A DNA stretch of 64,000 nucleotides. Source: Anaerolineae bacterium. GTDB lineage: Bacteria; Chloroflexota; Anaerolineae; Aggregatilineales; Phototrophicaceae. The notes under the pieces were generated by a model that was not told the origin of the DNA, did not search any database, and saw nothing but the letters and a program-made list of their open reading frames with translations. Shown here one piece after another: positions 4,934 to 20,608 of the stretch. The DNA lies in the NCBI GenBank assembly GCA_022841825.1, contig JALHQT010000008.1, positions 186,001-250,000 on the forward strand. The letters are read 5' to 3'. The position numbers and the translations under genes are program-made. The stretch's first letter is position 1, and every line of letters begins with the position of its first letter.

Positions 4934-5950
4934 ATGCCTCAGAGACCCTCAATGGGGGGTTGGCGCGTGGGATTGATCGGCGTGGCGGTGAGCGCGCTGG
5001 TCATCGTCTTTTTCGCCTCGCAGCTCGATCTGGCACTCCTGGGGGACGCGCTCGCCAATGGCAGCTATGTCTGGGTGATCCCTAGCTTTTTAATCCTGCT
5101 CGGCGGATTGTGGACGCGGGCACTGCGCTGGCGGGCGCTCCTGGGTGACGACCTGCCCACAACCCGCGCGTTCCACATCCTCAACGTCTCGTACCTCGTC
5201 AACGGGCTGCTGCCACTGCGCCTGGGCGAGGTCGCGCGCGCCTATCTCGCCTATCGTGCCGAACCTAAAGTCACGGTCGCGCGTGCCCTTAGCACAGTCG
5301 TCGTCGAGCGACTGCTCGATCTCCTCGCCGTCATCGGCATGATCGCCCTGGCGGCATCGGCAAGCCTGCCGCAGGAACTGCAGGCGGCTGCGCTGGCGGG
5401 CGCTCCTCTGGCAGTAGCAGGTTTGGTCGTCCTGGTCGTGCTGGCGATCAACAAGCCGCGCGCCCTCCGCTGGCTAGATATGCTGCTCGACAGACTGCCA
5501 TTCCTCAAACATCTGCCACTGCGCAAGATCGCCAACGAGATACTCGACGGTTTCGCGGTGCTCGCGCAGCCGACGGCATTCCTGCGCGTCATCGGATGGA
5601 CAGTCGTCAGTTGGGGGTTATCGGTCGTCGGCGGATACCTGTTGATGGCTGTCTTCTGGGAGACGGCGAGCTGGAACGCCACCATGCTGCTGATCTCCGC
5701 TGCCTCGCTCGCCATCGCCGTGCCCGCCGTGCCAGGCAACATCGGCACCTACGAAGCCTCGATCATCCTGGCGCTGGGCGCATTCGGGTACGGCGAACCG
5801 CTGGAAACCGCGACCGCCTATGCGGTCATCGTCCACGCCGTCAATCTGCTGCTCTTTGCGGTCATGGGCGGCATTGGCATGCTGCGAGAAGGGGTATCCC
5901 TGACGCAGCTCCGCGAGAGCGTAGGCAAAACACAGCCAACCAGGGGATGA
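4934..5950 (+). CDS. Flippase-like integral membrane protein (LPG_synthase_TM / UPF0104 type)
   Basis: 338 aa with about eight membrane helices. It has the pattern of the lysylphosphatidylglycerol-synthase TM / UPF0104 family: early RALRWRALL, then NGLLPLRLGEVARAYL (~92-107), VVVERLLDLL, and a late PAVPGNIGTYEASIILAL. Relatives lie in bacterial and archaeal envelope-polysaccharide and protein-glycosylation loci, where a lipid-linked sugar handling or flipping role is assumed. No soluble lysyl-transfer domain is present, so it is not MprF itself. The start is set at ATG 4934, 1 nt after the previous stop. It is followed 57 nt later by a glycosyltransferase. Confidence 0.75.
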   Translation: MPQRPSMGGWRVGLIGVAVSALVIVFFASQLDLALLGDALANGSYVWVIPSFLILLGGLWTRALRWRALLGDDLPTTRAFHILNVSYLVNGLLPLRLGEVARAYLAYRAEPKVTVARALSTVVVERLLDLLAVIGMIALAASASLPQELQAAALAGAPLAVAGLVVLVVLAINKPRALRWLDMLLDRLPFLKHLPLRKIANEILDGFAVLAQPTAFLRVIGWTVVSWGLSVVGGYLLMAVFWETASWNATMLLISAASLAIAVPAVPGNIGTYEASIILALGAFGYGEPLETATAYAVIVHAVNLLLFAVMGGIGMLREGVSLTQLRESVGKTQPTRG

Positions 5951-6007
5951 CAAATGCAGCGCTTGAACCTATCCTAGGGCGTCGGTTCATTCGTCTTCAG
6001 GATCGCC

Positions 6008-7186
6008 ATGTCTCGCGCCAGTCAGCCCGCGCCCACCAAGCTGCGCATTCTCATCTGCATCCTCTATTACCTGCCTCACCGCACAGGAATGCAGCTCTAC
6101 ATCCAACGCATCGCCGAAGAACTCGTCCGGCGAGGGCACGAAGTCACCATCCTCGCCGCCCGCCATCAGCTTGACCTGCCACGCGATGAACACATCAACG
6201 GCGTTCGCGTCATCCGTCTGAGTGCTCCACCCATCCCGATCAGCCGAGGCATGATCATGCCCGCCTATCCTTGGGCGGCGGCGGCGCTGATGCGCCAGCA
6301 CGATGTCGTGAGCGTGCATACCCCCATGCTGGAGACGGCGCTGCTGGCGCTACTGTCCAAGCTGACGGACAGACCCATCGTCGTCACACATCACGGCGAC
6401 CTGCTGCTGCCGGATGGTCTGGGCAACCGCATCATCCAGGGGGCAATGTTTGCCTTGTTTCGCGTCCTGGCGGCGCGCGCCTCCCGGATCATCGCCTACA
6501 GCCAGGATTATGCCGATCACTCGTACTATCTGAAGGACTACCAAAGCAAAGTCTGCCCGGTCTATCCACCGATCACGATGCCGCCGCATGATCCCGCTGC
6601 CGCCGCTGCACTGCGCATCGAATACGCGCCGGAAGGCGGACCGATCATCGGCTACGCCGGGCGCTTCGTGCAGGAAAAGCGCCCCGACCTGCTTATCCGT
6701 GCGCTCGACATCATTAACCAACACTACCCAAACGCGAAGATCGTCTTCGCGGGCGAACACCAGATCCCGTACGAAAACACCTGGGAACTCTATCAGCCGA
6801 TCGTGCAGAAGTACGAGAAGCAGCTCGTCTTCCTGGGCAAAAAGACGGATATGCAGTATATGGCGAATTTCTTCGCCGCCTGCGATGTCCTGGCGCTGAC
6901 GAGTGACAGCGAGTGCTTCGCACTGGTACAGGTTGAAGCGATGCTCTCCGGCACGCCTGTCGTGATGACGGACATCCCAGGGGGGCGCGTGCCCGTCCAG
7001 GTGACAGGCATGGGCAGGCTGACGAAACCAGGCGACCCCACGTCGATTGGCGAAGCGATCGTCGAAGTACTGCGAAATCGCCAGGAGTATGTAAAATCGT
7101 ACGAGGACATTGCTGCGACCTTTTCGTTCAAGGAGACCGTCGATCAGTATGAGCATCACTTCCGCGCCGCCGCGCAAAGTCGTTGA
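6008..7186 (+). CDS. Glycosyltransferase family 4 (GT-B fold)
   Basis: 392 aa. The N-terminal domain has the usual RxGHEVTILAA segment after a first strand ILICILYYLP and a GMQLYIQRIAEEL helix. The C-terminal domain has GYAGRFVQEKRPDLLIRAL (~217-235), a donor-binding region with SDSECFALVQVEAMLSG in place of the common EGFGxxxxEAM, and TDIPGGR. The donor is probably a nucleotide-sugar and the acceptor a lipid-linked sugar at the inner membrane face (family knowledge). The 3' end overlaps the methyltransferase start by 38 nt, showing tight coupling. Confidence 0.85.
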   Translation: MSRASQPAPTKLRILICILYYLPHRTGMQLYIQRIAEELVRRGHEVTILAARHQLDLPRDEHINGVRVIRLSAPPIPISRGMIMPAYPWAAAALMRQHDVVSVHTPMLETALLALLSKLTDRPIVVTHHGDLLLPDGLGNRIIQGAMFALFRVLAARASRIIAYSQDYADHSYYLKDYQSKVCPVYPPITMPPHDPAAAAALRIEYAPEGGPIIGYAGRFVQEKRPDLLIRALDIINQHYPNAKIVFAGEHQIPYENTWELYQPIVQKYEKQLVFLGKKTDMQYMANFFAACDVLALTSDSECFALVQVEAMLSGTPVVMTDIPGGRVPVQVTGMGRLTKPGDPTSIGEAIVEVLRNRQEYVKSYEDIAATFSFKETVDQYEHHFRAAAQSR

Positions 7187-8030
7187 CGACGCGACGCTCG
7201 CCCACATGACGCGCAACGAAGCAGACATGGCATTCAAGCGCCGTGTCCGTACCATCTTTGAGTGGGTTGCGCCTCAGGACGGTGACCTCATACTGGACAT
7301 CCCGTGCGGGCGCGGCTTCTATCTGAACATGTTCCGCTATGTCTCCAGTTGTAGGCTGGTCGGCGCGGAACTCGATTTCCCGGTCATCCGCAAAGCACAG
7401 CGCACCGTCGCCGACCTGCCCGGCATCGCGCTGCACAACGTCAACATCTACCGGCTTCCGTATCCTGACGACAGTTTCGACGCCGTCATCCTGTCGGAAA
7501 TCCTCGAACATATCGACGACGATGTCGCCGGACTGCGCGAGGTCTTGCGCGTCCTCAAACCTGGCGGCGTGGTCGCCATCACCGTCCCCAACGCCGATTA
7601 CCCCTTTTGGTGGGACCCGATCAACCGGACGCTCGAATTTCTCTTCAAGCGCCACATCTCGCGCGGCATGTTCGCGGGCATCTGGGCGAACCATGTCCGC
7701 CTCTACCGCCGCGAACAGCTCCATGCGGCAGTGACCAGCGCGGGCTTCATCGTGGAAGAAGAACGCGCCTTCACGCATCACAGCTTCCCGTTCATCCATA
7801 ATCTGGTCTATGGCATCGGCATGCCGCTGCTGGAAAAAGGGGTGCTACCAGAAAAGATGGCGAACGCCGCCGACCGCACCACGTTCGACCGGAACGACGG
7901 CAGCCTGCTGAACCCGATCAACCTGGGGCTGGCGGTCTTCAACTTCTTCGACCGCCCGAATACGATGAGCGAACCCATTGGACGCTCGACCGTCAACCTT
8001 TGCGTGAAAGGGCGCAAGCCAACCGCATGA
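7149..8030 (+). CDS. Class I SAM-dependent methyltransferase
   Basis: 293 aa from ATG 7149; ATG 7110 is also in frame but would overlap the previous gene more. Motif I is LILDIPCGRGFYLNMF (~39-54), the acidic post-I residue lies in GAELD, and the DxFDAVILSEILEHIDD and LREVLRVLKPGGVVAITVPN blocks are typical of Methyltransf_11 enzymes. In this context it probably methylates a sugar of the glycan or its lipid carrier, but the acceptor is not visible. Its stop overlaps the next gene's ATG (ATGA), so translation is coupled. Confidence 0.82.
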   Translation: MSITSAPPRKVVDDATLAHMTRNEADMAFKRRVRTIFEWVAPQDGDLILDIPCGRGFYLNMFRYVSSCRLVGAELDFPVIRKAQRTVADLPGIALHNVNIYRLPYPDDSFDAVILSEILEHIDDDVAGLREVLRVLKPGGVVAITVPNADYPFWWDPINRTLEFLFKRHISRGMFAGIWANHVRLYRREQLHAAVTSAGFIVEEERAFTHHSFPFIHNLVYGIGMPLLEKGVLPEKMANAADRTTFDRNDGSLLNPINLGLAVFNFFDRPNTMSEPIGRSTVNLCVKGRKPTA

Positions 8031-10609
8031 ATGAGCAGCCTCATGCCCTCGACGACCTGACGCTGGCAGAAGTCATCGACCGCCTCGTCAGATCGCCTAT
8101 CACCACGTCTCGTGCGCTGCTCGATTACTTCATGAGCGCACCGCCTATCCCGCGCGGATCAGAAATCCAGGATGACCTCGCACTCTCACCCGCCAACCGC
8201 GAGACGATACTCCTCCCCGCACCGGTAAGGGCTGCCGAAAACGCAGCGATGGCTTTAGACGAGCGTGACCGGACCCAGGCAACCGGGCGCGACTGGGCGA
8301 TCCTCCTCGCCCAGATGCTCGGTCTGACGCTGGCGTGGGCGGGTACCGGTATCATGGCGTTTGCCTCGCTGCGCACGGAAGAAAGCGCGCTCTGGACGGC
8401 GGCACCGTTTGCCCTGCTCGGTACGCTGATTTGGCTGGGTGCGCAGTTCGCCATCCGCACCACTCATGTTCCTGCCTTCGCTCCGGTCACCGCACCGCTT
8501 GAATATGTCGCGCCGCGCCTCGGCATGATCACACGGGCATTCGCGGACTCGATGCAGCTCCGACTGCTGCTGATCGCGTTGGCGGTCATGGCAAGCATCG
8601 TCACCTTCGTCTATTCGGCGGGCAACACGTTCCGACCTGTCGGCGTCGTCGCCTGGGTTCTCAGCATTCTCTTCTGGTTACAGGCGCTCGCGCCTAGCGG
8701 CTGGTCGCCGCTCTACCCGCTGCGCCGCTGGCGAGCACGGCTGCTCGGCACTCAGGTATATTCGGGACGCACAGCGGACGCCATGAATGGCGTCCCTACA
8801 CCAGACGAGTCTGTAGGGACGCCATTCATGGCGTCCGGCTCTGCGAATTCGGCGTCTTCGCGGTTCTATTCTCCCTTATGGGTTAGCGGCGCGCTGATTA
8901 CGATTTTGCTGCTTGGCGCGGTCTTCCGTCTGACAGACATCGCTGGGACTCCGCCGGAAATGACCAGCGACCACGTCGAAAAGCTGCTCGACAGCCAGCG
9001 CGTCTTTGACGGCGGAACACAAATCTACTTCCAGAACAATGGCGGGCGTGAGCCGCTCCAGATGTATGTCATGGCGGCATTTGTCGGGCTGACCGGGCAG
9101 CCGATGGATCATGACACGCTCAAGCTTGTCACCGCGCTCGAAGGCATCCTGACGATCCCGATCTTCTTCTGGCTGGGGCGAGAGCTGGTCGGGCGCTACA
9201 ACCCGCGCCTGGGCATCCTGGTCGGCTTGCTGCTGGCGGGGCTGATCGCCGCGTCGTACTGGCATGTCTCGCTCAGTCGGCTGGCGCTGCGCATCATCTA
9301 CACACCTGGCATCGTCGCCCTCATCTTCATCTATCTGGCGCGGGCGCTGCGCGATAACCGCCGCATCGACTTCCTGAACGCGGGCTTGGCGCTCGGCGCA
9401 GGGTTGTACATGTACCAGGTCATCCGCATCATGCCCGTCGTCGTCCTCGTCGGCGTCGGCACCGCTGTCTTTCTGATCGCGCGCAGTTGGGAAGAACGAC
9501 GGCGTTATCTCTTCAATCTGGCGATGCTGGTCATCATCTCGTTTGTCGTCTTCATGCCGCTGTTCCGCTTCTCGGTCGATTACCCCGACGATTTCTGGCG
9601 GCGCACCAGCGGGCGCTTATTTGGCGACGATCTGACGCAGGTTGTCGCGGACGACGGCACGATCACCGAACGTGTGCCGACGTTCGACGAGCGCATTGCT
9701 GCCTTTGGTGAAAACATCCCGCTCCTGGCGAACAACCTCCGCAACGCTCTGCTGATGTATAACTGGAAGGGCGACGTGGCGTGGATCAGCGCCGCGCCCA
9801 ATCGCCCGGCGCTCGACCCGCTGTCGGGCGCACTGCTGGTTGTCGGCATTGGCGCATGGATCGGCTGGACGATTCGCAAGCGCGATGCGGCGCTCTGGCT
9901 CGTCCTGCCCGCCTGGTTCATCCTGATCTTCCCGTCGGCGCTTTCGATTGCGTATCCCATCGAAAACCCCAGCGCCACGCGCATGAGCGGCACGCTGCCG
10001 TTCGCCTACCTGATCGCCGCGTTCGGCTTGGCGACGCTGCTGATGGCATTCATGAAGATCGCCCCTCGCCGCGTCGGAATCACGGGCACGGTGCTCGCAG
10101 TCATCGCAGCGCTCGGCATCAGCTATGGAGCGAACTGGCAGACCTACTTCGGCGATTTCCGCGATACCTATCTAATCTCATCCAAACCCTACAGCAGCGC
10201 GGGCGCGCTCCTGCGCCAGTTCTCCACGAATGAAGGCAGCTATGGCAACGCCTTTATGGTCGGCTACCCCTACTGGTGGGATCACCGCGCCATCGGCATC
10301 GCCGGCGGACGCATCAACTGGCCAAACGGCATTGTGACGCGCGACGACATCCCCCGCTTCCTGCGCGATGCCCGCGCCCGCCAGGATGCTTACACGCTCG
10401 ACGCCGACCGTCCGCTGCTCTTCATGATTTCGCCCGATGATGTCGATACCGAACTCCGCTTGGAATTGTGGTTCCCGGATGGCTTCGCCGAGTCCGTCAC
10501 GACCTCGCATCCGCTGGATACCTACCGGGTGTACACCGTACCGCCGCTGGGTGAAGACGGATTGGCAGCCTTCATCGCGGAATACGCGCCGGACGAAGAT
10601 GCGCAGTAG
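8027..10609 (+). CDS. GT39/PMT-like polytopic glycosyltransferase with an in-frame repeat insertion
   Basis: 860 aa. The N-terminal ~100 residues are soluble; about 12-14 membrane helices follow (~95-700); the C-terminal ~150 residues are probably extracytoplasmic. The core resembles ArnT/PMT-type GT-C enzymes using lipid-phosphate sugars. The first loop reads GTPPEMTSDHVEKLLDSQ, where a DE/DD pair is normally found, so the catalytic acid is uncertain. Residues ~249-272 (RTADAMNGVPTPDESVG..) are encoded by a palindromic repeat inserted in frame (8776-8836). The gene starts inside the methyltransferase stop and is the last of its unit, with a terminator at 10699. Confidence 0.75.
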   Translation: MNEQPHALDDLTLAEVIDRLVRSPITTSRALLDYFMSAPPIPRGSEIQDDLALSPANRETILLPAPVRAAENAAMALDERDRTQATGRDWAILLAQMLGLTLAWAGTGIMAFASLRTEESALWTAAPFALLGTLIWLGAQFAIRTTHVPAFAPVTAPLEYVAPRLGMITRAFADSMQLRLLLIALAVMASIVTFVYSAGNTFRPVGVVAWVLSILFWLQALAPSGWSPLYPLRRWRARLLGTQVYSGRTADAMNGVPTPDESVGTPFMASGSANSASSRFYSPLWVSGALITILLLGAVFRLTDIAGTPPEMTSDHVEKLLDSQRVFDGGTQIYFQNNGGREPLQMYVMAAFVGLTGQPMDHDTLKLVTALEGILTIPIFFWLGRELVGRYNPRLGILVGLLLAGLIAASYWHVSLSRLALRIIYTPGIVALIFIYLARALRDNRRIDFLNAGLALGAGLYMYQVIRIMPVVVLVGVGTAVFLIARSWEERRRYLFNLAMLVIISFVVFMPLFRFSVDYPDDFWRRTSGRLFGDDLTQVVADDGTITERVPTFDERIAAFGENIPLLANNLRNALLMYNWKGDVAWISAAPNRPALDPLSGALLVVGIGAWIGWTIRKRDAALWLVLPAWFILIFPSALSIAYPIENPSATRMSGTLPFAYLIAAFGLATLLMAFMKIAPRRVGITGTVLAVIAALGISYGANWQTYFGDFRDTYLISSKPYSSAGALLRQFSTNEGSYGNAFMVGYPYWWDHRAIGIAGGRINWPNGIVTRDDIPRFLRDARARQDAYTLDADRPLLFMISPDDVDTELRLELWFPDGFAESVTTSHPLDTYRVYTVPPLGEDGLAAFIAEYAPDEDAQ
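8776..8836. repeat. Perfect paired-palindrome element inside a coding sequence
   Basis: The left arm 8776-8800 and the right arm 8812-8836 are exact reverse complements (25 bp) around an 11-nt loop. Each arm is itself a near-palindrome (GGACGCCAT-ga-ATGGCGTCC) followed by CTACA. The reading frame of the GT39-like gene passes through it without a stop, adding about 20 residues to a loop between membrane helices. The perfect symmetry inside a gene argues for recent insertion. Confidence 0.85.
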
Positions 10610-10698
10610 CGCTTTGATGCACCAGCCGCTTGCAGGGATACCGACGGATAACGAACCGTTGCCGTGTGCACTCAAGCGCTCTACAATGGTTGAGGATT

Positions 10699-10746
10699 AA
10701 GCGCCCCTGGGCTGTATAAAGCTCGACAATGGGGCGCTTTATTGTA
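10699..10746 (+). terminator. Intrinsic terminator closing the first glycan transcription unit
   Basis: AAGCGCCCC (10699-10707) pairs perfectly with GGGGCGCTT (10731-10739) and is followed by TATTGT. The loop is 23 nt. It lies 90 nt after the GT39-like stop and before the giant gene at 10840. It separates two transcription units and could work in both directions because AAs flank the left arm. Confidence 0.65.
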
Positions 10747-10751
10747 CGCAA

Positions 10752-10813: not shown

Positions 10814-10839
10814 ATGACCGAACACGGATTCTTCTCTTG

Positions 10840-13800
10840 ATGTACGACTCAACCACGCCCAAGCCCACGCGCCGACACAGCCTGTTTGTCTCGGTTGCGC
10901 TGATCGTGTTAATGATAGCGGGGGGGTATCTGCGCTTCGTCGGTCTCAGTTGGGACGACTACACGATGATGCACCCCGATGAGCGCTTCCTGATGCAGGT
11001 TACAAGCGGTCTCGGCGGCGGGCATATCTACGTCTTCAGCGACCCCAGCTCGCTCAACACCAATCAGCTCCTGGTGCGTGAAAACTGCCTTGCCCGCTAT
11101 CCGGCGACGATGGGTTCGGGCGGCTACTTTGATGCCGAATGCTCGCCCTACAACCCGCACAACCAGGGGCATGCCACGTTCGTCTATGGCACACTCCCTA
11201 TCTTCATGTTCCGAGGCATGGCGGAGATCTTCGCTGCCGTCACGGGCGACCCCGGTTGGACGGGGCTGATCCAGACCTTCACGCCAGCCCGCACCGTCTC
11301 CGCGCTCGCCGAGACGCTCGTCATCCTGGTCATCTTCTGCATCGGGCTGCGCGCGCACGACAAATGGGTCGGGTTGCTGGCAGCGGGGCTGTACACCTTC
11401 GTCGCCTTTTCGATCCAGCAGGCGCACTTCGGCACGGCAGACGCCACCGCCAACCTGTTCGTCGCACTGACGATGCTTTTCGCGGTTTGCATCCAACGCG
11501 GCGGCAAACTGCGGGATTACGCCTTTTTCGGCGCGGCGCTCGCCTGCGCGCTCGCCAGCCGCATCAATCTGCTGCCGCTCGCGGGCTTACTGGCAGTCGT
11601 CGCACTCGTGCGGCTGCTGCCCAGTTTCGCACGCGGCATCGAGCGCCAGGAGCGAGAAGCTACCTGGATGGAAGTCGGCGTCGGTATCGTCGTCGCGCTT
11701 CTCACGACAGTTGTCCTGTTTCGTCTGCTCAACCCCTATGCTTTCATGGGACCGAGTGTTTTTGGCATCGTGCCAAACCGCGAATGGCTCGACGATGTCG
11801 CCCTTTCGCGTTTCTTCGTCAGCGGCGACTACGAAGCGCCACCGAACTGGCAGTGGGTCGCACGCCCACGATACGTGTTCGCACTCTGGAACATGGTCGC
11901 CTGGGGCACCGGATTGGCGTTGGGGATCGTCGGTTGGTTGGCAGCACTCGTCGCCTTCTGGCGTATTGTACGCGGCAAACCCGGTGCGCTCGCCAATGCC
12001 GTCCCCGCCGCGTGGATCATCGCCTATTTTGGATTCACGGGCGGCTTATGGGTGATGACGATGCGTTATTACCTGCCGCTCTATCCTGCCATCGCGCTGA
12101 TGGCGGCGTGGGGCATTCTGGCGCTGGTGCGGGCGCGGCGGCGGGTCGGGACGACACATAGGGACGGGACGACACATGGGTCGTCCCCTACGACCCATTT
12201 GCCCTCGTTTAGCCCCGCACGCCTCACCCGCGCCTTTGGCGTCGTTCTCCTCATTGTGGTCGGCGGTTTCACGGTGGCTTGGGGACTGGGCTTCGCGCAG
12301 AACTACACCCGCCTGCTGACGCGCGTCGAAGGCAGCTACTGGTTCTGGGAGGAGGTGCCGGGCGATTTCGCCATGCGCATTGATGGCGCGCCAGAAGGTA
12401 CGCCGCTGATCAACATCGCCATCGCCAACAGCCAGTATGTCGGGCGATTTGTCGATTGGGAGGGGCAGGCGACGCGCTTCCCGCGCGCGGGCACCAGCTA
12501 CTACAGCGATTTCACGGCACCCGCCAGCGGCACCGTCTCATCGATCATCGCGCCGCACCTGGGCGATCTGACTGACAGCCCCGATGAAGAAGTTCTGCGC
12601 TTCAACGTTCTGCGCATCACCGACAGCATGGTCGTCGGCACGACCGAACTCAGCGCCGATCTGACGCGCGAAAACCATCTGCTCGGTGACCGCTATGACA
12701 TTCCATTCGATCCTGCGGTGCCGCTGGACGAAGGCGAGCGCTATCGCTTCATCGTCACGCTTGAAGCCGGCGAAGATGTCGTCAGCGGAGGTTCGCTCGT
12801 CGTCTGGGAGGGCGATTGGGACGACCCGATGCCACAGAAGACCTGCGCCCCCAGCGATGGACTGTCGCTGGTGGATAACCCCCCGCCAGGTCGCTTCTCG
12901 GTTTACGAATGCGATGGGCGCGATGTCTACTGGGCACTCGTCGGTGGTGGCTACAAGCTGCAAATCGCTGATAACGACAGCCCCGCCGCGCGCGAGAACA
13001 TGCTCCGCCTGATGGAGACGACCGATTACATCTTCATCGGCAGCAACCGCTTCTACGATCCGATGGCGCGCAACCGCACCCGCTGGCCAATGGCGAATCG
13101 TTACTACGAGGCGTTGTTCAGCGGCGAACTTGGCTTCGAGGTCGCGGCAGTCTTCGACCGGGGCTTCCAGCTCGGACCGCTCTACATCCCCACCAACAAC
13201 CTGCCGATGCACAATGCTCCGCCCTGGGTCAACGAGCTGGAAGCGGAAGAAGCGTTCCACGTCTACGACCATCCGGCAGTCATCATCCTGCGCAAGACCG
13301 CGGACTATTCGCCAGAGACGGCGCGCGCCATCCTCGAAGGCGTGCCGATGCAGACAGCGGCGGCGGCGCGCCCGCTCTTCAACTGTGCCGACAATCTCGA
13401 CGCCTACTACTGCGACCCGACGCTGATCGACACTGACATTCTCACGTCGCTGCAAGCGGCACGCACCCCGACCTACCTGCAAATCCCGGAAGAAGACCGC
13501 GCACTGCAGGATGCAGGCGCAACCTGGTCGGAGCGCTTTGACAGCGATTCCATCATCAACACACAGCAGCCGCTCACGGTCGCGGCGTGGTGGCTGACGA
13601 TGATCATCATCGGGTGGGTGGCATTCCCGCTCTTGTTCGTGCTGCTGCCCGCTCTGGGCGATCGTGGCTACAGCCTGGCGAAGACCGCCGGGCTGCTGCT
13701 GACGGCGTGGGCAGTCTGGTACATCTCCAGCACACAAATCCCTGCCTGGAACGCGCGCGGAATCCTCGTCACGCTGATCGCGCTGGTGCTGATCGCGCTG

Positions 13801-16140
13801 GCGGTCGTCTGGCGCAGACGCCGCGAATTCCTCGAATTCACGCGCGAACGCTGGCGCATGATGCTCGGCATCGAGCTGATTACGCTGCTGGCGTTCCTGT
13901 TCTTCGTCGGGGTGCGCCTGACCAATCCTGACCTGTGGCACTTCGCTTTTGGTGGCGAAAAGCCGATGGATTTCGCCTACTTCAACGGCGTGCTGCGCTC
14001 GTCGGTCTTCCCGCCCATCGACCCCTGGTACGCGGGCGGCTATATCAACTACTACTACTTCGGCTTCGTCCTCGTCGGCACGCCCACCCTGCTGCTGGGC
14101 ATCCTGCCCCAGATCGCATACAACCTCGCCATCCCCACGATCTACGCGCTGACCGCCATCGGCGCGTTCAGCATCGCCTACAACGCAGCCTGGGCAATAG
14201 ACCGTCGCAAAGAAGGGGCGCGCCACAGCGCACCCGACAACGGAGCGCCGCGCCTGAACCCCTGGCTCGCGGGCATCGCGGCGCTGCTGCTGGCGGTCGT
14301 GCTGGGCAACCTCGATACGCCGCGCACCTTCTTCACGGGGGTGATGACGCTCGGCGGTTACGACGCGCCCGGCTCGCTGGCGGATTACCTGACTGAGCAG
14401 GCGATTGGTGCAGACGACCCCGAAAACATCGACTACGCCGCCATCGAGGCGCGCGCGCAGAACCCCTCCATCACGGACCGCGTCAGCTACAGTCTGAGCG
14501 GCACGGGCGAAAGTCTGCGGGCGCTCGGCAGCGGTTTCGCGCGGCTGCTTCAGGGCGCGCCGCTTCCGATTGCGCCTCATCGCTGGTACTGGGGACCGAC
14601 GCGCATCTTCAACGAAAACCCCGCCGACCTCGGCATTGTCGAGATGCCGTACTTCACGTTTCTGTATGGCGACCTGCACGCACACATGATCGCGATGCCG
14701 CTGCAATTCCTGGTCATCGGGCTGCTGATGAGCGAAATCCTGGCGGCAGGGCGCGGTGCGCGCCCAACCTGGATGCGGTTCGGCGCGCTGGCGATCCTTG
14801 GAATTGCTGCCGGGATGCTGAATGCCACCAATACCTGGGACTGGATCACCTATCTGATCCTTTGCCTGATCGGCTTAGGATTCGCGTGGTGGCTGGCTTG
14901 GCGGGGCAAACTCAGCCGTATGTCCGTGCTCGCGCTGCTCGGCAGTACAGGCGGCTTCTTCATCCTGCAATGGGCAGCGACCCTGCCCTACACCTCATGG
15001 TACGCGACCGCCTACACCAGCGTGCAGCCCTGGTCAGGCGACAAAAGCCACCTCTGGGGCTTGTTCAGTGTGCACGGCTTATTCCTCTTCCTCATCATCA
15101 CGCTGCTGACCTGGGAGACAGGTCGCTGGTTCCGGAGCGTGCCCCTGCACAGTCTGCGTCCGTATGGTCCCATACTCTTCGGCGCTCTGATCGTCATCCT
15201 CACGGCGGCGGCGGGCGTCGCGCTCGCAGTCCTGCTCGGCTATCAGGCGGCGTTAATCGTCGTCCCACTCATCCTGTGGATCGCGCTGCTCTTCTTCCGT
15301 CCTGGGCAGTCGCGCGCGATGCAGTACCTGCTCGCGCTGATCGGCTTATCGCTCTCGCTGATGCTCGGCGTCGAGGTGATCGTCCTCAGCGGCGATATCG
15401 GGCGCATGAACACCATGTTCAAGTTCTACATCCAGGTCTGGCTGATGTTCAGCACGGTGGGCGGGGTCGCGTTTGCCATCGTCTGGTCGAGTCTGGATCG
15501 CTGGCGTAGTGGGCTGCGCAACGCCTGGATCGGCACGCTGGTCGTCCTGGTCACGCTTGCCGCGATGTTCCCGCTGATGGCGACGCGCGGGCGCGCGCTC
15601 GACCGCTTCTCGCTCGAAGTGCCGACGACCCTCGACGGCATGGCATACATGAACTACGCCACCCATGGCGAAAATGACGAGTATGTGCCGTTGGACGGCG
15701 ACTACCGCCTGATCCGCTGGATGCAGGAGAATATCGTCGGACTGCCCACCATCATCGAAGGACAAAGCGAGGCAAACCTCTACAAATGGGGCAGCCGCAT
15801 TTCGATCAACACCGGGCTGCCCGCCGTCGTCGGCTGGGACTGGCATCAGACACAGCAGCGCGGCTTGTATGGCATGCCCGCCTTCATCCGGCAGCGCGGG
15901 TCTAACGTCAATGCCTTCTATAACACGCGCGACATCGCCACCGCGCAGCGCATCCTCGACTTTTATGATGTCGAATACGTCGTCGTCGGCATCCTCGAAC
16001 GCATTTACTACCCGGCAGCCAGCCTGGCGAAGTTCGACGAGATGGTCGAAGCAGGGCTGCTGGAAGTCGTCTACAGCGACGGCGATGATCGTATTTATCG
16101 TGTGCTGCGCACTACGCCAGCCACATTAGCGCAAAGGTAA
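10840..16140 (+). CDS. Giant membrane protein: GT39-like half fused to a Chlor_Arch_YYY (DUF2298) half
   Basis: 1,766 aa from ATG 10840 (a TTG at 10837 is adjacent). Residues ~1-500 are a GT-C/PMT-like unit with a MHPDERFLM acidic motif in the first loop and many helices, followed by an extracytoplasmic region (~510-890). From ~900 onward it is a second polytopic unit with EKPMDFAYFNGVLRS, FPPIDPWYAGGYINYYYFG (YYY at ~1071-1073), FLYGDLHAHMIAMPLQF, NATNTWDW and NTMFKFYIQVW. These recur in the next gene. DUF2298 has no established biochemistry. Co-occurrence with PMT-like proteins suggests transfer or export of a glycan. A short direct and inverted repeat is embedded at residues ~437-453. Confidence 0.78.
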   Translation: MYDSTTPKPTRRHSLFVSVALIVLMIAGGYLRFVGLSWDDYTMMHPDERFLMQVTSGLGGGHIYVFSDPSSLNTNQLLVRENCLARYPATMGSGGYFDAECSPYNPHNQGHATFVYGTLPIFMFRGMAEIFAAVTGDPGWTGLIQTFTPARTVSALAETLVILVIFCIGLRAHDKWVGLLAAGLYTFVAFSIQQAHFGTADATANLFVALTMLFAVCIQRGGKLRDYAFFGAALACALASRINLLPLAGLLAVVALVRLLPSFARGIERQEREATWMEVGVGIVVALLTTVVLFRLLNPYAFMGPSVFGIVPNREWLDDVALSRFFVSGDYEAPPNWQWVARPRYVFALWNMVAWGTGLALGIVGWLAALVAFWRIVRGKPGALANAVPAAWIIAYFGFTGGLWVMTMRYYLPLYPAIALMAAWGILALVRARRRVGTTHRDGTTHGSSPTTHLPSFSPARLTRAFGVVLLIVVGGFTVAWGLGFAQNYTRLLTRVEGSYWFWEEVPGDFAMRIDGAPEGTPLINIAIANSQYVGRFVDWEGQATRFPRAGTSYYSDFTAPASGTVSSIIAPHLGDLTDSPDEEVLRFNVLRITDSMVVGTTELSADLTRENHLLGDRYDIPFDPAVPLDEGERYRFIVTLEAGEDVVSGGSLVVWEGDWDDPMPQKTCAPSDGLSLVDNPPPGRFSVYECDGRDVYWALVGGGYKLQIADNDSPAARENMLRLMETTDYIFIGSNRFYDPMARNRTRWPMANRYYEALFSGELGFEVAAVFDRGFQLGPLYIPTNNLPMHNAPPWVNELEAEEAFHVYDHPAVIILRKTADYSPETARAILEGVPMQTAAAARPLFNCADNLDAYYCDPTLIDTDILTSLQAARTPTYLQIPEEDRALQDAGATWSERFDSDSIINTQQPLTVAAWWLTMIIIGWVAFPLLFVLLPALGDRGYSLAKTAGLLLTAWAVWYISSTQIPAWNARGILVTLIALVLIALAVVWRRRREFLEFTRERWRMMLGIELITLLAFLFFVGVRLTNPDLWHFAFGGEKPMDFAYFNGVLRSSVFPPIDPWYAGGYINYYYFGFVLVGTPTLLLGILPQIAYNLAIPTIYALTAIGAFSIAYNAAWAIDRRKEGARHSAPDNGAPRLNPWLAGIAALLLAVVLGNLDTPRTFFTGVMTLGGYDAPGSLADYLTEQAIGADDPENIDYAAIEARAQNPSITDRVSYSLSGTGESLRALGSGFARLLQGAPLPIAPHRWYWGPTRIFNENPADLGIVEMPYFTFLYGDLHAHMIAMPLQFLVIGLLMSEILAAGRGARPTWMRFGALAILGIAAGMLNATNTWDWITYLILCLIGLGFAWWLAWRGKLSRMSVLALLGSTGGFFILQWAATLPYTSWYATAYTSVQPWSGDKSHLWGLFSVHGLFLFLIITLLTWETGRWFRSVPLHSLRPYGPILFGALIVILTAAAGVALAVLLGYQAALIVVPLILWIALLFFRPGQSRAMQYLLALIGLSLSLMLGVEVIVLSGDIGRMNTMFKFYIQVWLMFSTVGGVAFAIVWSSLDRWRSGLRNAWIGTLVVLVTLAAMFPLMATRGRALDRFSLEVPTTLDGMAYMNYATHGENDEYVPLDGDYRLIRWMQENIVGLPTIIEGQSEANLYKWGSRISINTGLPAVVGWDWHQTQQRGLYGMPAFIRQRGSNVNAFYNTRDIATAQRILDFYDVEYVVVGILERIYYPAASLAKFDEMVEAGLLEVVYSDGDDRIYRVLRTTPATLAQR
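12148..12198. repeat. Direct plus inverted repeat inside the giant gene
   Basis: GGGACGACACAT occurs at 12148-12159 and 12166-12177. The second copy runs into the inverted repeat ATGGGTCG (12176-12183) / CGACCCAT (12191-12198) with a loop containing CCCCTA. The wording resembles the GTAGGGGCG-type palindromes between genes. It adds a Thr/His/Gly-rich loop (GTTHRDGTTHGSSPTTH) between membrane helices without breaking the frame. Confidence 0.6.
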
Positions 16141-16148
16141 GCAGGCTG

Positions 16149-18725
16149 ATGATCCTGGAGTGGTTATCGCGCGAAGGCATGATGCTCGTCTCGTGGTGGC
16201 TGTTGACCGCCGTGGCAGGCGCTGCGGCGCTGCCCCTGCTCTGGCGACTGCTGCCCGGCTTGCCCGACCGAGGCGCGCTGCTGATGCGTGCGGCGGGGCT
16301 GCTGCTGGTCGGCTTCACCTTCTGGCTGCTCGGCAGTTTCGGCTTCCTCGCCAACGAACCCGGCGGCATCGTCGTCGCGTGGGTCATCGTCCTCGCCATC
16401 AGCCTCACCGTCTACTTCACACGGCGGGACCCGTTCGATCTGCGGGCGTGGTGGCGCGAACACCGCGTCGCGTTCCTGGTCGGGGAAATCCTGTTCATCG
16501 CCCTCCTCGTCGGTTGGGGCATCATCCGCGCCCACAATCCGGACACCTCATCGACCGAAAAGCCGATGGATCTGATGTTCATCTCTTCGATCATGCGCAG
16601 CGAATCGTTTCCGCCCAATGACGGCTGGATGGCGGGGTATGCCATCAGCTACTATTACTTTGGCTACCTGATCGCCGCGATGCTCGGTACGATGAGCAGC
16701 TTAAGCAGCACCAACAGCTACAGCATGATGATCGTGCTGCTGGTTGCGCTGACTGCGCAATCTGCCTTCGGTCTTGCCTACAATCTTGTCCGCGCCAACG
16801 CCCCGCGCGCCTTGTATGCCGAGGCAGCCAACCGCTTCCAGCGCACAACGCGAGCAGTCATGCCATCCACGCTGCCCGCCATCGCCACCGGGCTGCTGGC
16901 GGCATTCTTCGTCGTGCTGCTGGGCAACTTTCAGGCACCGCTGATCGAAATCCCTTACCAGACGCGCACGGCATCCGAGGCATACCTCGCCTTCTGGGAT
17001 ACCCCAGAGCGCAGCATCTACCCGGAACGCGAAGCCGCCCGCGCCCAGGGCATTCCCGACAGCGACCCCGTCGTCCTGGAGCCGCGCGATCTGCTCTCGC
17101 CGGACGCTGGTACGGTCTGGTTGTGGTGGTGGCGCGCCAGCCGCGTCATTCAGGATCGCGACCTGATCGGGACACCCATCGGCATTCAGCCGATTGACGA
17201 GTTCCCGATGTTCAGCTTCCTGCTCGCGGACAGCCATCCGCACGTCATGGCGCTGCCCTTCGTCCTGTTCGCGCTGGCGCTGGCATTCAACGTCGTCCGT
17301 TCCGGTGGCGCGCCTGACCGGACACAAATCGTGTTCTACGCGCTCTGCCTGGGCGGGCTGATCTTCTTCAACACCTGGGACGGACCGATCTACATGGCGA
17401 TCCTCGTCATGGCGGACATCATCCGGCGGCTGCGCACAGCACCGGATTGGAAGATCAACCGCGCCGACCTGATCGACATCGTCCTCTTTGCAGTCGCCAT
17501 CGTCGGGCTGGCGGTACTGTTCTACCTGCCCTTCCTGATTGGCTTCCGCTCGCAGGCGGGCGGCTTCCTGCCCAACTGGGAATTCCCCACCTTGTTCCGC
17601 CAGTATTTCATCGTCTTCGGTCCGTTCATTCTGCTCCTGACGCCGTTCGTCGCCGTCGAAGTCTGGCGCGGGCGCGAGACGCTCAACCTGCGCACGGGCG
17701 CACTGACCGCCGTCGCGGTGCTGGGCGGGCTGATCCTGCTCATGCTTTTCCTGAGCGTCATCGCGTCCCTGGTGGGCGTTGGGACACCGCAAATCAACCT
17801 CGGTGCTGTCCTCGCGCGCCGCATCAGTCATATCGTCCTGACGGTCGTCCTGCTGGCGGGCATCACGCTCGTCATTGCCCGGCTGTTCCCGCGCAAGTCC
17901 ACCGCGCTGGCAGGCATTCCGCAGCCCTTCCCATATTCCGCTTCGACCGGGTTCGTGTTCATCCTGATCGCGGCGGGCTTGGGATTAACGCTTGTCCCGG
18001 ATTACGTCTATCTGCGCGACAACTTCGGCGTGCGCATCAACACGGTCTTCAAGTTCTATTACGCTGCCTGGGTCGTCTTCAGCATCGCTGCCGCGTATGG
18101 CGTCCACAGCGTGATCAGCGATGTACAGGAGCGCGCGCCGGCGGCTCTGCGCGCGGCAATGGGTGCCATTACGCTGGTCGTCATCACACTCGGCAGCGTT
18201 TACCCGATCCTCAGCGTGCACTACCGGACATTGCAGGAGTCCGGGCGGCTCTCGGTTGAGACACAGCCCCCACTGACGCTCGATGGCGGGCGTCGTTTCA
18301 TCACGCGCGATCCGGGCGGCAGCGACTACGCGGCGATACAATGCCTGGCGCAGCGTGTTGTCGGCGACGATGTCGTCATCGTCGAAGCCGTCGAAGGCAC
18401 GTACAATCCGAACGTCGGGCGCGTCGCCGCGCTGACGGGAATGCCTGTGTTGTTCAACTGGCCCGGGCATCAGGTGCAGTGGCGAGGCGCGACGTTTAGT
18501 GAAGTCGCGGGCAGCAGGCAAGGCGATATTCAGACCCTTTACACGTCAGACGACTGGAATACGGTCGCAGGTCTCCTCAACCGCTACGGAGTGGACTACA
18601 TCTTCTTCGGTATAACAGAGCGCGATATGTACAGCCCCGACGCCGAGACCAAGTTCCGCGACCGCCTGACGCCCATCTGTGAGTACGAAGGCAGTCGCTT
18701 TTACGCAGTGGAAGGTTCGACCTGA
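16149..18725 (+). CDS. Chlor_Arch_YYY (DUF2298) membrane protein, paralogue of the preceding C-terminal half
   Basis: 858 aa, about 14-16 membrane helices, soluble C-terminal ~130 residues. It shares an ordered set of motifs with residues ~900-1766 of the gene before it: TEKPMDLMFI, SFPPNDGWMAGYAISYYYFG (~155-173), FLLADSHPHVMALPF, FFNTWDGP, NTVFKFYYAAW, then GMPVLFNWPGHQVQWRG and VDYIFFGITERDMY. This points to tandem duplication followed by fusion of one copy. Conserved D, H and W residues in the extracytoplasmic loops (ADSHPH / GDLHAH) are candidate active-site or metal residues (inference). The gap to the giant gene is 8 nt; the stop overlaps the next start (TGATG). Confidence 0.82.
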   Translation: MILEWLSREGMMLVSWWLLTAVAGAAALPLLWRLLPGLPDRGALLMRAAGLLLVGFTFWLLGSFGFLANEPGGIVVAWVIVLAISLTVYFTRRDPFDLRAWWREHRVAFLVGEILFIALLVGWGIIRAHNPDTSSTEKPMDLMFISSIMRSESFPPNDGWMAGYAISYYYFGYLIAAMLGTMSSLSSTNSYSMMIVLLVALTAQSAFGLAYNLVRANAPRALYAEAANRFQRTTRAVMPSTLPAIATGLLAAFFVVLLGNFQAPLIEIPYQTRTASEAYLAFWDTPERSIYPEREAARAQGIPDSDPVVLEPRDLLSPDAGTVWLWWWRASRVIQDRDLIGTPIGIQPIDEFPMFSFLLADSHPHVMALPFVLFALALAFNVVRSGGAPDRTQIVFYALCLGGLIFFNTWDGPIYMAILVMADIIRRLRTAPDWKINRADLIDIVLFAVAIVGLAVLFYLPFLIGFRSQAGGFLPNWEFPTLFRQYFIVFGPFILLLTPFVAVEVWRGRETLNLRTGALTAVAVLGGLILLMLFLSVIASLVGVGTPQINLGAVLARRISHIVLTVVLLAGITLVIARLFPRKSTALAGIPQPFPYSASTGFVFILIAAGLGLTLVPDYVYLRDNFGVRINTVFKFYYAAWVVFSIAAAYGVHSVISDVQERAPAALRAAMGAITLVVITLGSVYPILSVHYRTLQESGRLSVETQPPLTLDGGRRFITRDPGGSDYAAIQCLAQRVVGDDVVIVEAVEGTYNPNVGRVAALTGMPVLFNWPGHQVQWRGATFSEVAGSRQGDIQTLYTSDDWNTVAGLLNRYGVDYIFFGITERDMYSPDAETKFRDRLTPICEYEGSRFYAVEGST

Positions 18726-20608
18726 TGCAGGAACTACAACTTGTGCGCGGGAGTGACGCGCGTCAGACCGCCGACACGACCGCCGTATGGACACTCCCCT
18801 GGGAGTGGGTGGTGTACGTCGCTCTGGCGGGGCTGGCGCTGCTCCTCTTCAGCAGCGAACTTCACCTGGTGCCTTTGAGCGCCGATGAAGCAAGGCAAGC
18901 GCTGACTGCCTGGCGTTTCGTCGATGCTACAGCGCCGGGCGTGGACGCGGTTCCCGCCAGTCCGCTGCTCTTCTTCGCGCAATCCACCACCTTTGCCCTG
19001 TTCGGCGGTGGCGAAGGCTATGCCCGGATTGCCACCGCGCTGGCAGGCGCAGCACTCGTCCTCGCGCCAGCACTGCTGCGCGGCAGCCTGGGTGCCTCGC
19101 GCGCGCTGCTTCTGAGCGCGCTGCTTGCCTGTTCGCCCGTCGTCATCGTCGCCGCGCGCACGAGCGCGCCGATGATCTGGGCGGCGCTGCTGGCGCTGCT
19201 CACGTTATGGGCAGGAGGGCGCTTTTGGGCAACGCGGGCACGCGGCTGGGCTATCGCGGCGCTGGTGTTCCTCGCACTGCTCATGTTCATGACTGAGCCG
19301 GGCGGAACACTGCTGGGGCTGACTCTGCTGGTCGCTGTCGTCATGAGCAGGCTGAGTGGTGGGGATGATGAACAGGACGACGCGGACGATGAAGCGAGCG
19401 AGATGAGCGCGCGGCTGGCACAAGCCCTGCGTGAATTCCCATGGGGACTGGCATTCGCAGCGGCGGCACTCGTGGTGATCGCTCTCAGCACGCTGTTCCT
19501 GACACACCCGCCAGGGTTGACCGCAGTGGGAAATGTGCTTCTCAACACGGTTAGCGGCTTCGCTCAACGCGGGTCGGACACACTCTCGTTCTTTCCCATG
19601 CTCATCAGCATCTTCTACGAACCCTGGCTGTGGATTCTCGCCATCGGCGTCGCGTACTGGGTTTCGCGTGGGAATAACCCCGCGCCCACCTTCCTTGACC
19701 GCGTTGCCATCATATGGCTGGCACTTAACGCTGTCATCAGCCTGCTCTTCCTCGAAGCAGAGGCGGAACACGCGCTCTGGCTAACGCTGCCGCTTGCACT
19801 GCTGTCCTCGCGGCTGGCGCTGGTCATTTTCGCGCCCATCCGTGACGAGACTCCTGCGTGGGCGCAGTGGCTGGTCGCGGTACTGGCGCTCGGCTTGCTG
19901 GCGATGGGCAGTCTGGCATTCCAGGGGGCGGCACGGTCAATCGCGCGCATCGATTTCAGCAACCCCGCCTGGGCACAACAGGTCGATGTGCTGGGTCTTG
20001 TCATCCTGCTGATCGTGCTGGCGTTCGCCGTCGTCGGCTATTTCCTGGTGCGCAGCTTCTGGGAAAACCGCAGCGTGCCCCTGCGGGCGGGCACAGCCGC
20101 CCTCCTCACGTTTGCTGCCTTCACGGGCATTGGCGCGGGCTGGCGCACGGCGGTGACCGAAGCGGATAACCCGGTCGATTTCTGGCAGCGCAGTGCCCCC
20201 TCCCGCGAAGGACTGCTCCTGCGCGAATCGCTGATGGATCTGGCGGAACGCACCTCGCGCGGCTTCACCGAGATGCCGATCACCGTGATCAGCGCCGGAG
20301 ACCCGCTGATCGAGTGGGCAGTGCGCGACTTCAGCGCGGCACGCTTCGTCAGCGGTTATGACGAAGTCGGCAGCGCGCCCGTGCTGCTTGTGCTCGCCAA
20401 CAGCGATTTCGACCGCTCACCTCCGCTGGAAGGCAATTATGTCGGGCAGGACTTTGTGCTTTCTCGTCGCTGGACGCTCGACAACCTCCGTCCGGTGGAT
20501 GTCCCGCAGTGGTGGTCACAGCATCGTGCGCTCAACACCTTCGCCGCCGTGCCGAATCAGGCGATCCTCTGGGTACGGACGGATGTATACGCGGGGGTCG
20601 CTCGCTAG
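18725..20608 (+). CDS. Agl23/GT39-like membrane protein
   Basis: 627 aa, about 12 helices, acidic cytosolic loop near residues ~210-225 (GGDDEQDDADDEASE), C-terminal soluble part (~480-627). The N-terminus reads VPLSADEARQALTAWRF then ASPLLFFAQSTTFALFGGGEGYARI. This matches the layout of the TIGR03663/Agl23-type family (DE, HGPLLYY, two Arg), which typically sits beside YYY proteins; here HGP is replaced by ASP. These proteins look like PMT glycosyltransferases but their reaction is unproven. It is coupled to the YYY gene by a 1-nt overlap and ends the block in a hairpin. Confidence 0.65.
   Translation: MQELQLVRGSDARQTADTTAVWTLPWEWVVYVALAGLALLLFSSELHLVPLSADEARQALTAWRFVDATAPGVDAVPASPLLFFAQSTTFALFGGGEGYARIATALAGAALVLAPALLRGSLGASRALLLSALLACSPVVIVAARTSAPMIWAALLALLTLWAGGRFWATRARGWAIAALVFLALLMFMTEPGGTLLGLTLLVAVVMSRLSGGDDEQDDADDEASEMSARLAQALREFPWGLAFAAAALVVIALSTLFLTHPPGLTAVGNVLLNTVSGFAQRGSDTLSFFPMLISIFYEPWLWILAIGVAYWVSRGNNPAPTFLDRVAIIWLALNAVISLLFLEAEAEHALWLTLPLALLSSRLALVIFAPIRDETPAWAQWLVAVLALGLLAMGSLAFQGAARSIARIDFSNPAWAQQVDVLGLVILLIVLAFAVVGYFLVRSFWENRSVPLRAGTAALLTFAAFTGIGAGWRTAVTEADNPVDFWQRSAPSREGLLLRESLMDLAERTSRGFTEMPITVISAGDPLIEWAVRDFSAARFVSGYDEVGSAPVLLVLANSDFDRSPPLEGNYVGQDFVLSRRWTLDNLRPVDVPQWWSQHRALNTFAAVPNQAILWVRTDVYAGVAR

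What the first reader, a model, noticed from the sequence alone, without database searches (positions are those of the whole stretch)
4934..20608. Archaeal-style glycan assembly/export block with tandem YYY and GT-C proteins
Eight co-oriented genes include a secreted PPC protein just upstream, a flippase-like LPG_synthase_TM protein, GT4, methyltransferase, a GT39-like protein, two Chlor_Arch_YYY (DUF2298) units and an Agl23/GT39-like protein. Seen: gene order, overlaps and motif sets. Known: YYY proteins and Agl23-like proteins tend to co-occur and are found mostly in Chloroflexi and archaea; their reaction is unproven. Inference: together they assemble, flip and transfer a lipid-linked, methylated glycan to a surface protein or lipid. 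This is the best candidate in the window for an undescribed system.
Basis: partly seen in the sequence, partly recalled or inferred. Interest (0 to 1): 0.8.

Follow-up and report, generated by a model that had tools for sequence, protein, structure and literature searches.

The report
Conserved Chloroflexota sugar-transferase operon
A tightly ordered set of membrane sugar-transferase genes, two of them from a protein family of unknown function, recurs across this bacterial class and probably builds and attaches a surface sugar chain outside the cell, though what it decorates is not yet known.

Summary
The block is real. Seven co-oriented genes (4934-20608) encode a flippase-like protein, a GT4, a methyltransferase and four large membrane proteins. 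Both DUF2298/YYY units score far above cutoff. The "PPC" gene is sub-threshold and was not found upstream of the block in 10 of 10 relatives examined. The last gene is not Agl23 by the curated model (58 bits against 126); it is a diverged Agl23 paralogue. The genome's true Agl23, fused to an NHL propeller, lies outside the window.

Gene order recurs in many Anaerolineae. In 91 sampled Chloroflexota genomes, strong DUF2298 and TIGR03663 matches occur in exactly the same 60; 31 have neither. A clear STT3 is found in 1 of 91, which lacks both.

AlphaFold models of YYY (pLDDT 93.5) and of the Pfam-unassigned p5 (pLDDT 85) have GT-C folds, nearest STT3/AglB, AftA, DPY19, ArnT. Fused and standalone YYY are two old paralogue types, both keeping the conserved motifs.

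Best reading: an extracytoplasmic, polyprenyl-phosphate-dependent glycan assembly and transfer machine. Donor, product and acceptor are untested.

The parts
4934..5950 (+). p2, flippase-like membrane protein (PF03706 LPG_synthase_TM / TIGR00374)
   Evidence: PF03706 158.8 bits, TIGR00374 57.4 bits over cutoff 43.2; at the head of the block in relatives, downstream of Agl23 in some other lineages
6008..7186 (+). p3, GT4-family glycosyltransferase, presumably cytoplasmic
   Evidence: PF00534 88.4 bits, PF13579 80.3 bits; none of the 25 NCBIfam models shown (of 28) reached its cutoff
7149..8030 (+). p4, class I SAM-dependent methyltransferase; start inferred at ATG 7149
   Evidence: PF08241 65.4 bits; substrate unknown; missing in some relatives
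8027..10609 (+). p5, Pfam-unassigned GT-C membrane protein, STT3/ArnT-like fold
   Evidence: No Pfam family over its cutoff; model pLDDT 85.0, pTM 0.84; Z 23.5 to yeast STT3 8agb_A (5.1 A, 445 aligned), Z 21.7 to ArnT 5f15 (4.5 A, 447); related to p6N by profile
10840..13506 (+). p6N, N-terminal GT-C half of the fusion (HPDE motif at aa 46-49 of the 1767-aa ORF that opens at 10837)
   Evidence: PMT_2 31.4 bits, cutoff 26.1; D48 and E49 nearly invariant; unfused 625-aa protein in L153. Not modelled here
13537..16137 (+). p6C, C-terminal YYY (DUF2298) half of the fusion, type F
   Evidence: DUF2298 358 bits, TIGR03662 496 bits; separate clade from p7
16149..18725 (+). p7, standalone YYY (DUF2298) protein, type S, GT-C fold with AglB-like C-terminal globular domain
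   Evidence: DUF2298 345 bits, TIGR03662 457 bits; model pLDDT 93.5, pTM 0.95; fold matches
18725..20608 (+). p8, diverged Agl23 paralogue that lacks most Agl23 signature residues
   Evidence: hhalign to the Agl23-NHL alignment prob 100, E 9.8e-41 over 533 columns; weaker match to p6N, prob 91.3, E 9.4e-7 over 115 columns; signature residues lost; TIGR03663 58.1 bits, under cutoff

Best explanation
This is a conserved Chloroflexota operon for making a surface glycan outside the cytoplasm. p3 (GT4), with p4 as a possible methyl decoration or cap, works on the inner face. p2 helps sugar-loaded polyprenyl lipids cross the membrane. On the outer face a set of GT-C enzymes (p5, p6N, the two YYY units, and the Agl23 pair p8 plus the separately encoded Agl23-NHL) takes sugars from polyprenyl-phosphate donors, extends the glycan and transfers it to an acceptor. 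The two YYY units are two different enzymes of one type, probably in one complex with p6N and Agl23. Shown here: gene order, predicted folds of p5 and p7, conserved motifs, paralogue split, YYY/Agl23 co-occurrence in the sample. Inferred: operon transcription, donor type, flipping, complex formation, transfer. Unknown: sugar, acceptor.
For: Order: a long-frame and a short-frame YYY lie within 3 kb on one strand in 44 of 60 relatives. In 28 of those 60 that I fetched (chosen by me, mostly for long contigs), p6 and p7 are adjacent in 26 and the full p2-p8 order is in 12 of 29 loci. In 80 named loci an ORF with a second YYY (the fusion or a piece of it) lies upstream of p7 in 55 of 64 with enough DNA, and p8 downstream in 56 of 69. 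Co-occurrence: strong YYY and TIGR03663 in the same 60 of 91 genomes, neither in 31; within 5 kb on one strand in 33 of 60. Fold: p7 Foldseek E 4.4e-6 to DPY19 and 4-5e-4 to AglB; VIA Z 13.8 to STT3 (7.3 A, 468 aligned), 13.1 to AftA (5.1 A, 498); residues 719-855 match the AglB C-terminal domain 3vu0_A at Z 9.9, 2.5 A, 115 aligned. p5 Z 23.5 to STT3. E137 of YYY, just after the first GT-C core helix, is E in 76 of 76; D158, E351, D361, H363, H365, R629, N631, K635, H774 in 75 or 76 of 76. p6N is a separate gene in L153 and is fused to two YYY in L139-L141.
Against: No sequence-level relative of YYY or p5 has a solved structure, and a fold shows no function. Catalytic residues were not superposed. 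Several relatives lack part of the block: only p6-p8 nearby in G013, G025 and G027; no p2 before p3 in G003 and none found in the 1.5 kb held before p3 in G023; no p4 in G030; p7 on another contig than p6 in G042. So p2-p5 are not obligate. One relative, G024 (88% complete), has no DUF2298 match at all. This genome's Agl23 is far from the operon. YYY and TIGR03663 are also absent together from 31 of 91 genomes, so the system is not universal in the phylum. The one biochemical result on an Agl23 that I saw (PMC11182771, passages) is lipid translocation, not transfer.
Confidence: 0.6

Rival explanations
1. Protein glycosylation: YYY and/or the STT3-like p5 is the transferase that puts a glycan on secreted or surface proteins, perhaps O-linked, standing in for the missing STT3/AglB. 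(A narrower form of the best explanation.)
For: STT3, AglB, DPY19 and Pmt4, all protein-modifying (recalled), are among the closest folds; YYY carries an AglB-like C-terminal globular domain; no STT3 or PMT_4TMC match in this genome. A Chloroflexota archaellin carries density read as likely O-glycans at T66 and T145 (PMC12488501, passages).
Against: AftA, AftB, ArnT and ALG12, which act on glycans or lipids (recalled), match about as well. Seven Wzy_C matches in this genome could include a bacterial O-oligosaccharyltransferase. I saw no glycoprotein data for this host.
Confidence: 0.3
2. Polysaccharide or lipoglycan assembly: the GT-C set is an elongation line like the mycobacterial arabinosyltransferases, making a cell-wall or membrane-anchored polymer, with no protein acceptor. 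(Also a narrower form of the best explanation.)
For: AftA Z 13.1 with 5.1 A over 498 residues and AftB Z 12.0; several different GT-C modules in one operon suggest several linkages; a methyltransferase could cap a chain (recalled for other polymers).
Against: The AglB-like C-terminal domain of YYY and the better STT3 scores of p5; no polymerase or ligase partner was identified in the block.
Confidence: 0.4
3. Lipid-sugar translocation: Agl23-type proteins and the YYY units are flippases or scramblases for polyprenyl-linked sugars and not transferases.
For: H. hispanica Agl23 suppresses yeast rft1 deletion and moves M5GN2-PP-Dol in liposomes (PMC11182771, passages); p2 is flippase-like by family name.
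Against: YYY keeps many invariant acidic, His, Arg and Lys residues, as expected for catalysis; Agl23 keeps an invariant H-D pair, D57 in 25 of 25.
Confidence: 0.15
4. Loose neighbourhood of unrelated membrane genes.
For: p1 and the downstream OTCase and TPR genes are ordinary neighbours; p2-p5 are missing near p6-p8 in a few relatives.
Against: Order kept in most loci examined, gene fusion, and exact YYY/Agl23 co-occurrence.
Confidence: 0.03

Closest known systems
TIGR03662 Chlor_Arch_YYY / PF10060 DUF2298
   Same: p6C and p7 are members, far over both cutoffs
   Different: I found no described function for the family; here its predicted fold, the split into fused and standalone types, the GT-C fusion partner and the operon are described
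TIGR03663 Agl23 (archaeal 'flippase activity-associated protein')
   Same: The genome's L025 protein passes the cutoff and p8 is homologous to it
   Different: p8 fails the cutoff and lacks most of the signature; the true Agl23 is fused to an NHL propeller
STT3/AglB/PglB oligosaccharyltransferases
   Same: GT-C fold; p5 Z 23.5 and p7 Z 13.8 to yeast STT3; AglB-like C-terminal domain in p7
   Different: No PF02516 match in the block proteins or in this genome; about 8-15% identity in the STT3/AglB/PglB rows; no WWDYG in p7
Mycobacterial arabinosyltransferases AftA, AftB, EmbB
   Same: p7 matches AftA at Z 13.1, 5.1 A over 498 residues
   Different: Different sequence family; no arabinan pathway was looked for
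ArnT and GT39/PMT enzymes
   Same: p6N and p8 match PMT_2; p5 matches ArnT at Z 21.7
   Different: No PMT_4TMC match in the genome; substrates unknown

Membership tests
TIGR03662 / PF10060 (YYY, DUF2298) | Score above curated cutoffs | tested here: met
   358 and 345 bits (cutoff 27.8); 496 and 457 bits (cutoff 300.25)
TIGR03663 (Agl23), for p8 | Score of at least 126.25 bits | tested here: not met
   58.1 bits
TIGR03663 (Agl23), for p8 | Residues invariant in my Agl23 alignment (H56, D57, H61, H81, E200, GEKMPW) | tested here: not met
   D at position 57 in 6 of 59 p8 against 25 of 25 Agl23; H not among the commonest p8 residues shown at 56, 61 or 81; E200 in 3 of 59; but E58 kept in 56 of 59 (58 p8 and 24 long Agl23-like ORFs picked by length and score from 80 loci, plus the window's p8 and the own genome's Agl23)
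GT-C superfamily, for p7 and p5 | GT-C fold | tested here: met
   All 7 Foldseek matches at E <= 0.001 for p7 and all 21 for p5 are enzymes known (recalled) as GT-C; VIA Z up to 13.8 and 23.5. Predicted models, not solved structures
GT-C superfamily, for p7 and p5 | Catalytic acidic residue in the first external loop | tested here: inconclusive
   E137 (p7) 76 of 76 and D315 (p5) 33 of 33 lie just after the first core helix, but were not superposed on a solved active site
STT3/AglB oligosaccharyltransferase | PF02516 match | tested here: not met
   None of the block proteins at E <= 0.001; own genome 0 matches of 15 candidates
STT3/AglB oligosaccharyltransferase | WWDYG-type acceptor motif (recalled) | tested here: inconclusive
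   Absent from the p7 sequence; p5 has W-x-D-x-R (W750, D752, R754, 33 of 33), WWDHR in the window, in its C-terminal domain; equivalence not tested
STT3/AglB oligosaccharyltransferase | Transfers a lipid-linked glycan to Asn | not testable with these tools
   Needs biochemistry
Protein O-mannosyltransferase (PMT) | PMT_4TMC (PF16192) domain | tested here: not met
   0 matches in the own genome; the control rings in C. glutamicum

The most novel reading that the evidence does not exclude
YYY plus Agl23 is an uncharacterised extracytoplasmic glycosylation machine shared by Chloroflexota and some archaea. It is a missing protein O-glycosylation system: it would modify surface proteins such as the archaellin of archaellated Anaerolineae, and the S-layer of haloarchaea, for whose O-linked disaccharide I saw no transferase named. 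YYY would be a new class of GT-C protein glycosyltransferase acting as a fused/standalone pair.
Probability: 0.2. Interest if true: 0.87.

Novelty: new variant of a known kind. Interest (0 to 1): 0.62.

Why it matters
Two protein families with no settled reaction (YYY, and to a large extent Agl23) turn out to be an exact pair in a sample of 91 Chloroflexota genomes, and YYY is predicted to have a GT-C fold with an AglB-like C-terminal domain. That turns a 'domain of unknown function' into a testable enzyme with named candidate residues. It also gives candidate genes for two questions: how the bacterial archaellum gets its likely O-glycans (PMC12488501, passages) and how archaea O-glycosylate proteins (PMC10384203 says very little is known; passages).

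Tried and rejected
PPC protein (p1) as part of the system: rejected. The PPC match is below cutoff and no p1 homologue was found upstream of p2 in the 10 fetched loci that hold p2 (L163-L171, L174; L170 has only about 2 kb there). p1 was also a query, but most of those loci end near p2, so that call alone was no test.

p8 as true Agl23: rejected by the curated cutoff. p8 as a plainly dead enzyme: not claimed, because the E of the motif is kept in 56 of 59 and position 56 is D or E in 40 of 59.

One YYY copy as a dead paralogue: rejected; both types keep the invariant motifs. L097_S is the one sequence on the wrong side of the split; its locus holds a shortened (875-aa) p6 ORF, so I suspect a fusion copy in a broken frame, not checked further.

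AglB pathway: rejected for this genome. In 41 relatives 20 have weak PF02516 matches at E <= 0.001, 9 of them over Pfam's 24.5-bit cutoff (best 33.8 bits, partial); I read them as other GT-C proteins, not checked one by one.

Sequence-only links: YYY against p6N gave only a 37-column match at the end of the p6N pieces (prob 47), where some pieces may run into YYY, and YYY against p5 gave nothing. PDB sequence searches gave no credible relative for YYY, p5 or p8 and only marginal ArnT/STT3 hits for p6N (E 0.012-0.026).

Literature: two papers in the library name DUF2298; PMC8756737 names it in a gene table (one passage seen) and PMC12828279 was seen only in the listing. A find for Agl23 in PMC8993221 gave none. 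Searches listed nothing on this operon among the titles shown; nothing outside that library was searched. Lu 2020 on Agl22/Agl23 was not read.

Archaeal gene neighbourhoods could not be examined: the plasmid search gave one partial haloarchaeal match.

Recalled, from no call: that TIGRFAM itself remarks on YYY/Agl23 co-occurrence, what each named GT-C enzyme acts on, and the WWDYG motif. Only 2 of the membrane proteins (p5, p7) were modelled.
Full report
1. What is there. The window is G000:C8:186001-250000 of a 5.9 Mb genome. On the + strand seven genes run from 4934 to 20608 with overlaps or short gaps, the one larger gap (230 nt) being between p5 and p6.

2. Order is conserved. Of 61 genomes (own plus 60 relatives), 60 have a DUF2298 match; the miss is G024. 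A long-frame (>= 1400 aa) and a short-frame (< 1200 aa) YYY lie within 3 kb on one strand in 44 of the 60 relatives; 12 of the other 16 have matches that did not pair this way, many in fragmented assemblies, 3 have only broken fragments and 1 has none. I then fetched the block from 28 of the 60 (29 loci, chosen by me mostly for long contigs, so not an even sample) and searched ORFs with the window proteins. p6 and p7 are adjacent and co-oriented in 26 of 28; the misses are G042 (different contigs of a 5-contig genome) and G040 (p7 not in the stretch). Full p2-p8 order is seen in 12 of 29 loci; many others are cut by the end of the contig or of the stretch. Departures: only p6-p8 nearby in G013, G025 and G027; no p2 before p3 in G003, and none in the 1.5 kb held in G023; no p4 in G030; 4.6 kb between p5 and p6 in G004. 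In 16 loci from 14 more distant genomes, L139-L141 have p6N fused to two YYY beside a standalone YYY; L148, L152 and L154 have p6-p7-p8-Agl23NHL-p2; L142, L147 and L150 have p6-p7 followed by Agl23 (L150 with p8 between); L149 has p3-p8; L153 has p6N as its own 625-aa gene beside YYY and Agl23; L143, L144, L145, L146 and L151 have a lone or split YYY. Fusion in most lineages and separation in one is a classic sign of working together (inference).

3. Co-occurrence. In an even sample of 91 Chloroflexota genomes, 63 have a DUF2298 match at E <= 0.001; three of these are weak (G077 1.5e-9, G086, G095) and were set aside, leaving 60 with best E < 1e-50. TIGR03663 at E <= 1e-25 is present in 60, the same 60. 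By family: 27 with both, 11 with neither, none mixed. The two lie within 5 kb on one strand in 33 of 60; in the window's genome they do not. The cutoffs (1e-50, 1e-25) were mine; at E <= 0.001 the DUF2298 tally is 63. Both families also ring in H. volcanii and M. acetivorans among 14 control genomes and in no other at these levels. STT3 at E <= 1e-10 is in 1 of 91 (G134), which has neither YYY nor Agl23. Genomes are related, so 60/31 is not 91 independent events; the family count is the fairer figure.

4. Fold. p7 was predicted from 80 aligned sequences: pLDDT 93.5, pTM 0.95. All 7 Foldseek matches at E <= 0.001 are DPY19, AglB or STT3. In the second look the first 42 rows (Z 7.2 or more) are GT-C enzymes, a GPI-transamidase subunit, or AglB C-terminal domains, and the next row falls to 5.2. 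rmsd is high (mostly 5-7 A) and the tool warns that helical proteins can reach Z 13 by arrangement alone, so the weight rests on the uniform list, the AftA match (5.1 A over 498), and the C-terminal domain: residues 719-855 on 3vu0_A at Z 9.9, 2.5 A over 115. p5 (33 sequences; pLDDT 85.0, pTM 0.84) is a clearer case: Z 23.5 to STT3, 21.7 to ArnT. Profile comparison links p5 to p6N (prob 98.2, E 2.9e-14), p8 to Agl23 (prob 100, E 9.8e-41) and weakly p8 to p6N (prob 91.3), but does not link YYY to p6N or p5 in the GT-C region. p6N, p6C, p8 and Agl23 were not modelled.

5. Motifs. A tree of 76 YYY sequences (74 of the 165 copies extracted, plus the two of the window) separates fusion (40) from standalone (36) copies with one exception, L097_S. 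E137 is E in 76 of 76; D158 in 75; E351 and H363 in 76; D361 and H365 in 75; R629, N631, K635, H774 in 76. Type marker: residue 778 is W in 35 of 36 standalone and Q in 40 of 40 fused. Residue 624 is D in 35 of 36 standalone and mostly G in fused copies, but p6 has an invariant Asp (D1520) close by, so this may be an alignment shift. In p5, D315, W750, D752 and R754 are invariant in 33 of 33. p8 has lost most residues invariant in Agl23.

6. How it may work. GT-C enzymes generally use polyprenyl-phosphate or -diphosphate sugars on the outer face (established, recalled). p3 and p4 would act inside, p2 and/or Agl23 would help lipid-sugars cross, and p5, p6N, the YYY pair and p8/Agl23 would extend and transfer outside. 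The published Agl23 work, read in passages (PMC11182771), reports that purified H. hispanica Agl23 supports translocation of M5GN2-PP-Dol in liposomes and describes it as a putative flippase for Glc/Gal-P-Dol used for N- and O-glycans. That keeps a flippase reading open for Agl23 and p8. The acceptor is open: protein-modifying (STT3, DPY19, Pmt4) and polymer- or lipid-modifying (AftA, ArnT, ALG12) enzymes match about equally for p7.

7. Why the bold reading is worth testing. A Chloroflexota archaellin has density read as likely O-glycans at T66 and T145, which its authors ascribe to existing bacterial machinery (PMC12488501, passages). H. hispanica S-layer carries an O-linked Glc-Gal disaccharide (PMC9943897, passages), and archaeal O-glycosylation is described as little known (PMC10384203, passages). 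In the phylum sample, all 12 genomes of the window's class have both YYY and Agl23, and one Caldilineaceae record carries the block (L129). This is association only, and seven Wzy_C matches in the window's genome are a competing source of O-glycosylation.

8. Verdict. A real, conserved system built from known kinds of parts, with two families that had no settled mechanism. New variant of a known kind (GT-C glycan assembly), interest 0.62.

Noticed in passing
L024:7166-12163 (G000:C5, about 187-192 kb): A third YYY: a lone 1666-aa GT-C/YYY fusion frame on another contig, downstream of secreted beta-helix, dockerin and CAP-domain proteins. Genomes G043, G049, G054 and G059 also carry a YYY in a separate 1634-1635-aa frame.
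   Followed up: partly
L025:7558-11472 (G000:C8, about 153.5-157.5 kb, minus strand): The genome's true Agl23 is fused to an NHL beta-propeller and sits directly after a sigma-70-type factor and a zf-HC2 (anti-sigma-like) gene, in a NusA-IF2-DHH run on the same strand.
   Followed up: partly
G134 (phylum sample): The only genome of 91 with clear STT3 matches (three frames of 780-819 aa) lacks both YYY and Agl23.
   Followed up: no
L062 (JAPUDW010000005.1): A record titled Bacteroidetes carries p3-p8 and a long Agl23-like gene of the Anaerolineae type, p7 at 44% identity; probably a mislabelled or mixed MAG.
   Followed up: no
G077, G086, G095 (phylum sample): Weak DUF2298 matches in genomes without a TIGR03663 match: possible distant relatives of the family.
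   Followed up: no
window:32765-35734 (-): Penicillin-binding-protein-like transglycosylase with a Big_7 domain and only a sub-threshold transpeptidase match; suggests a peptidoglycan wall.
   Followed up: no
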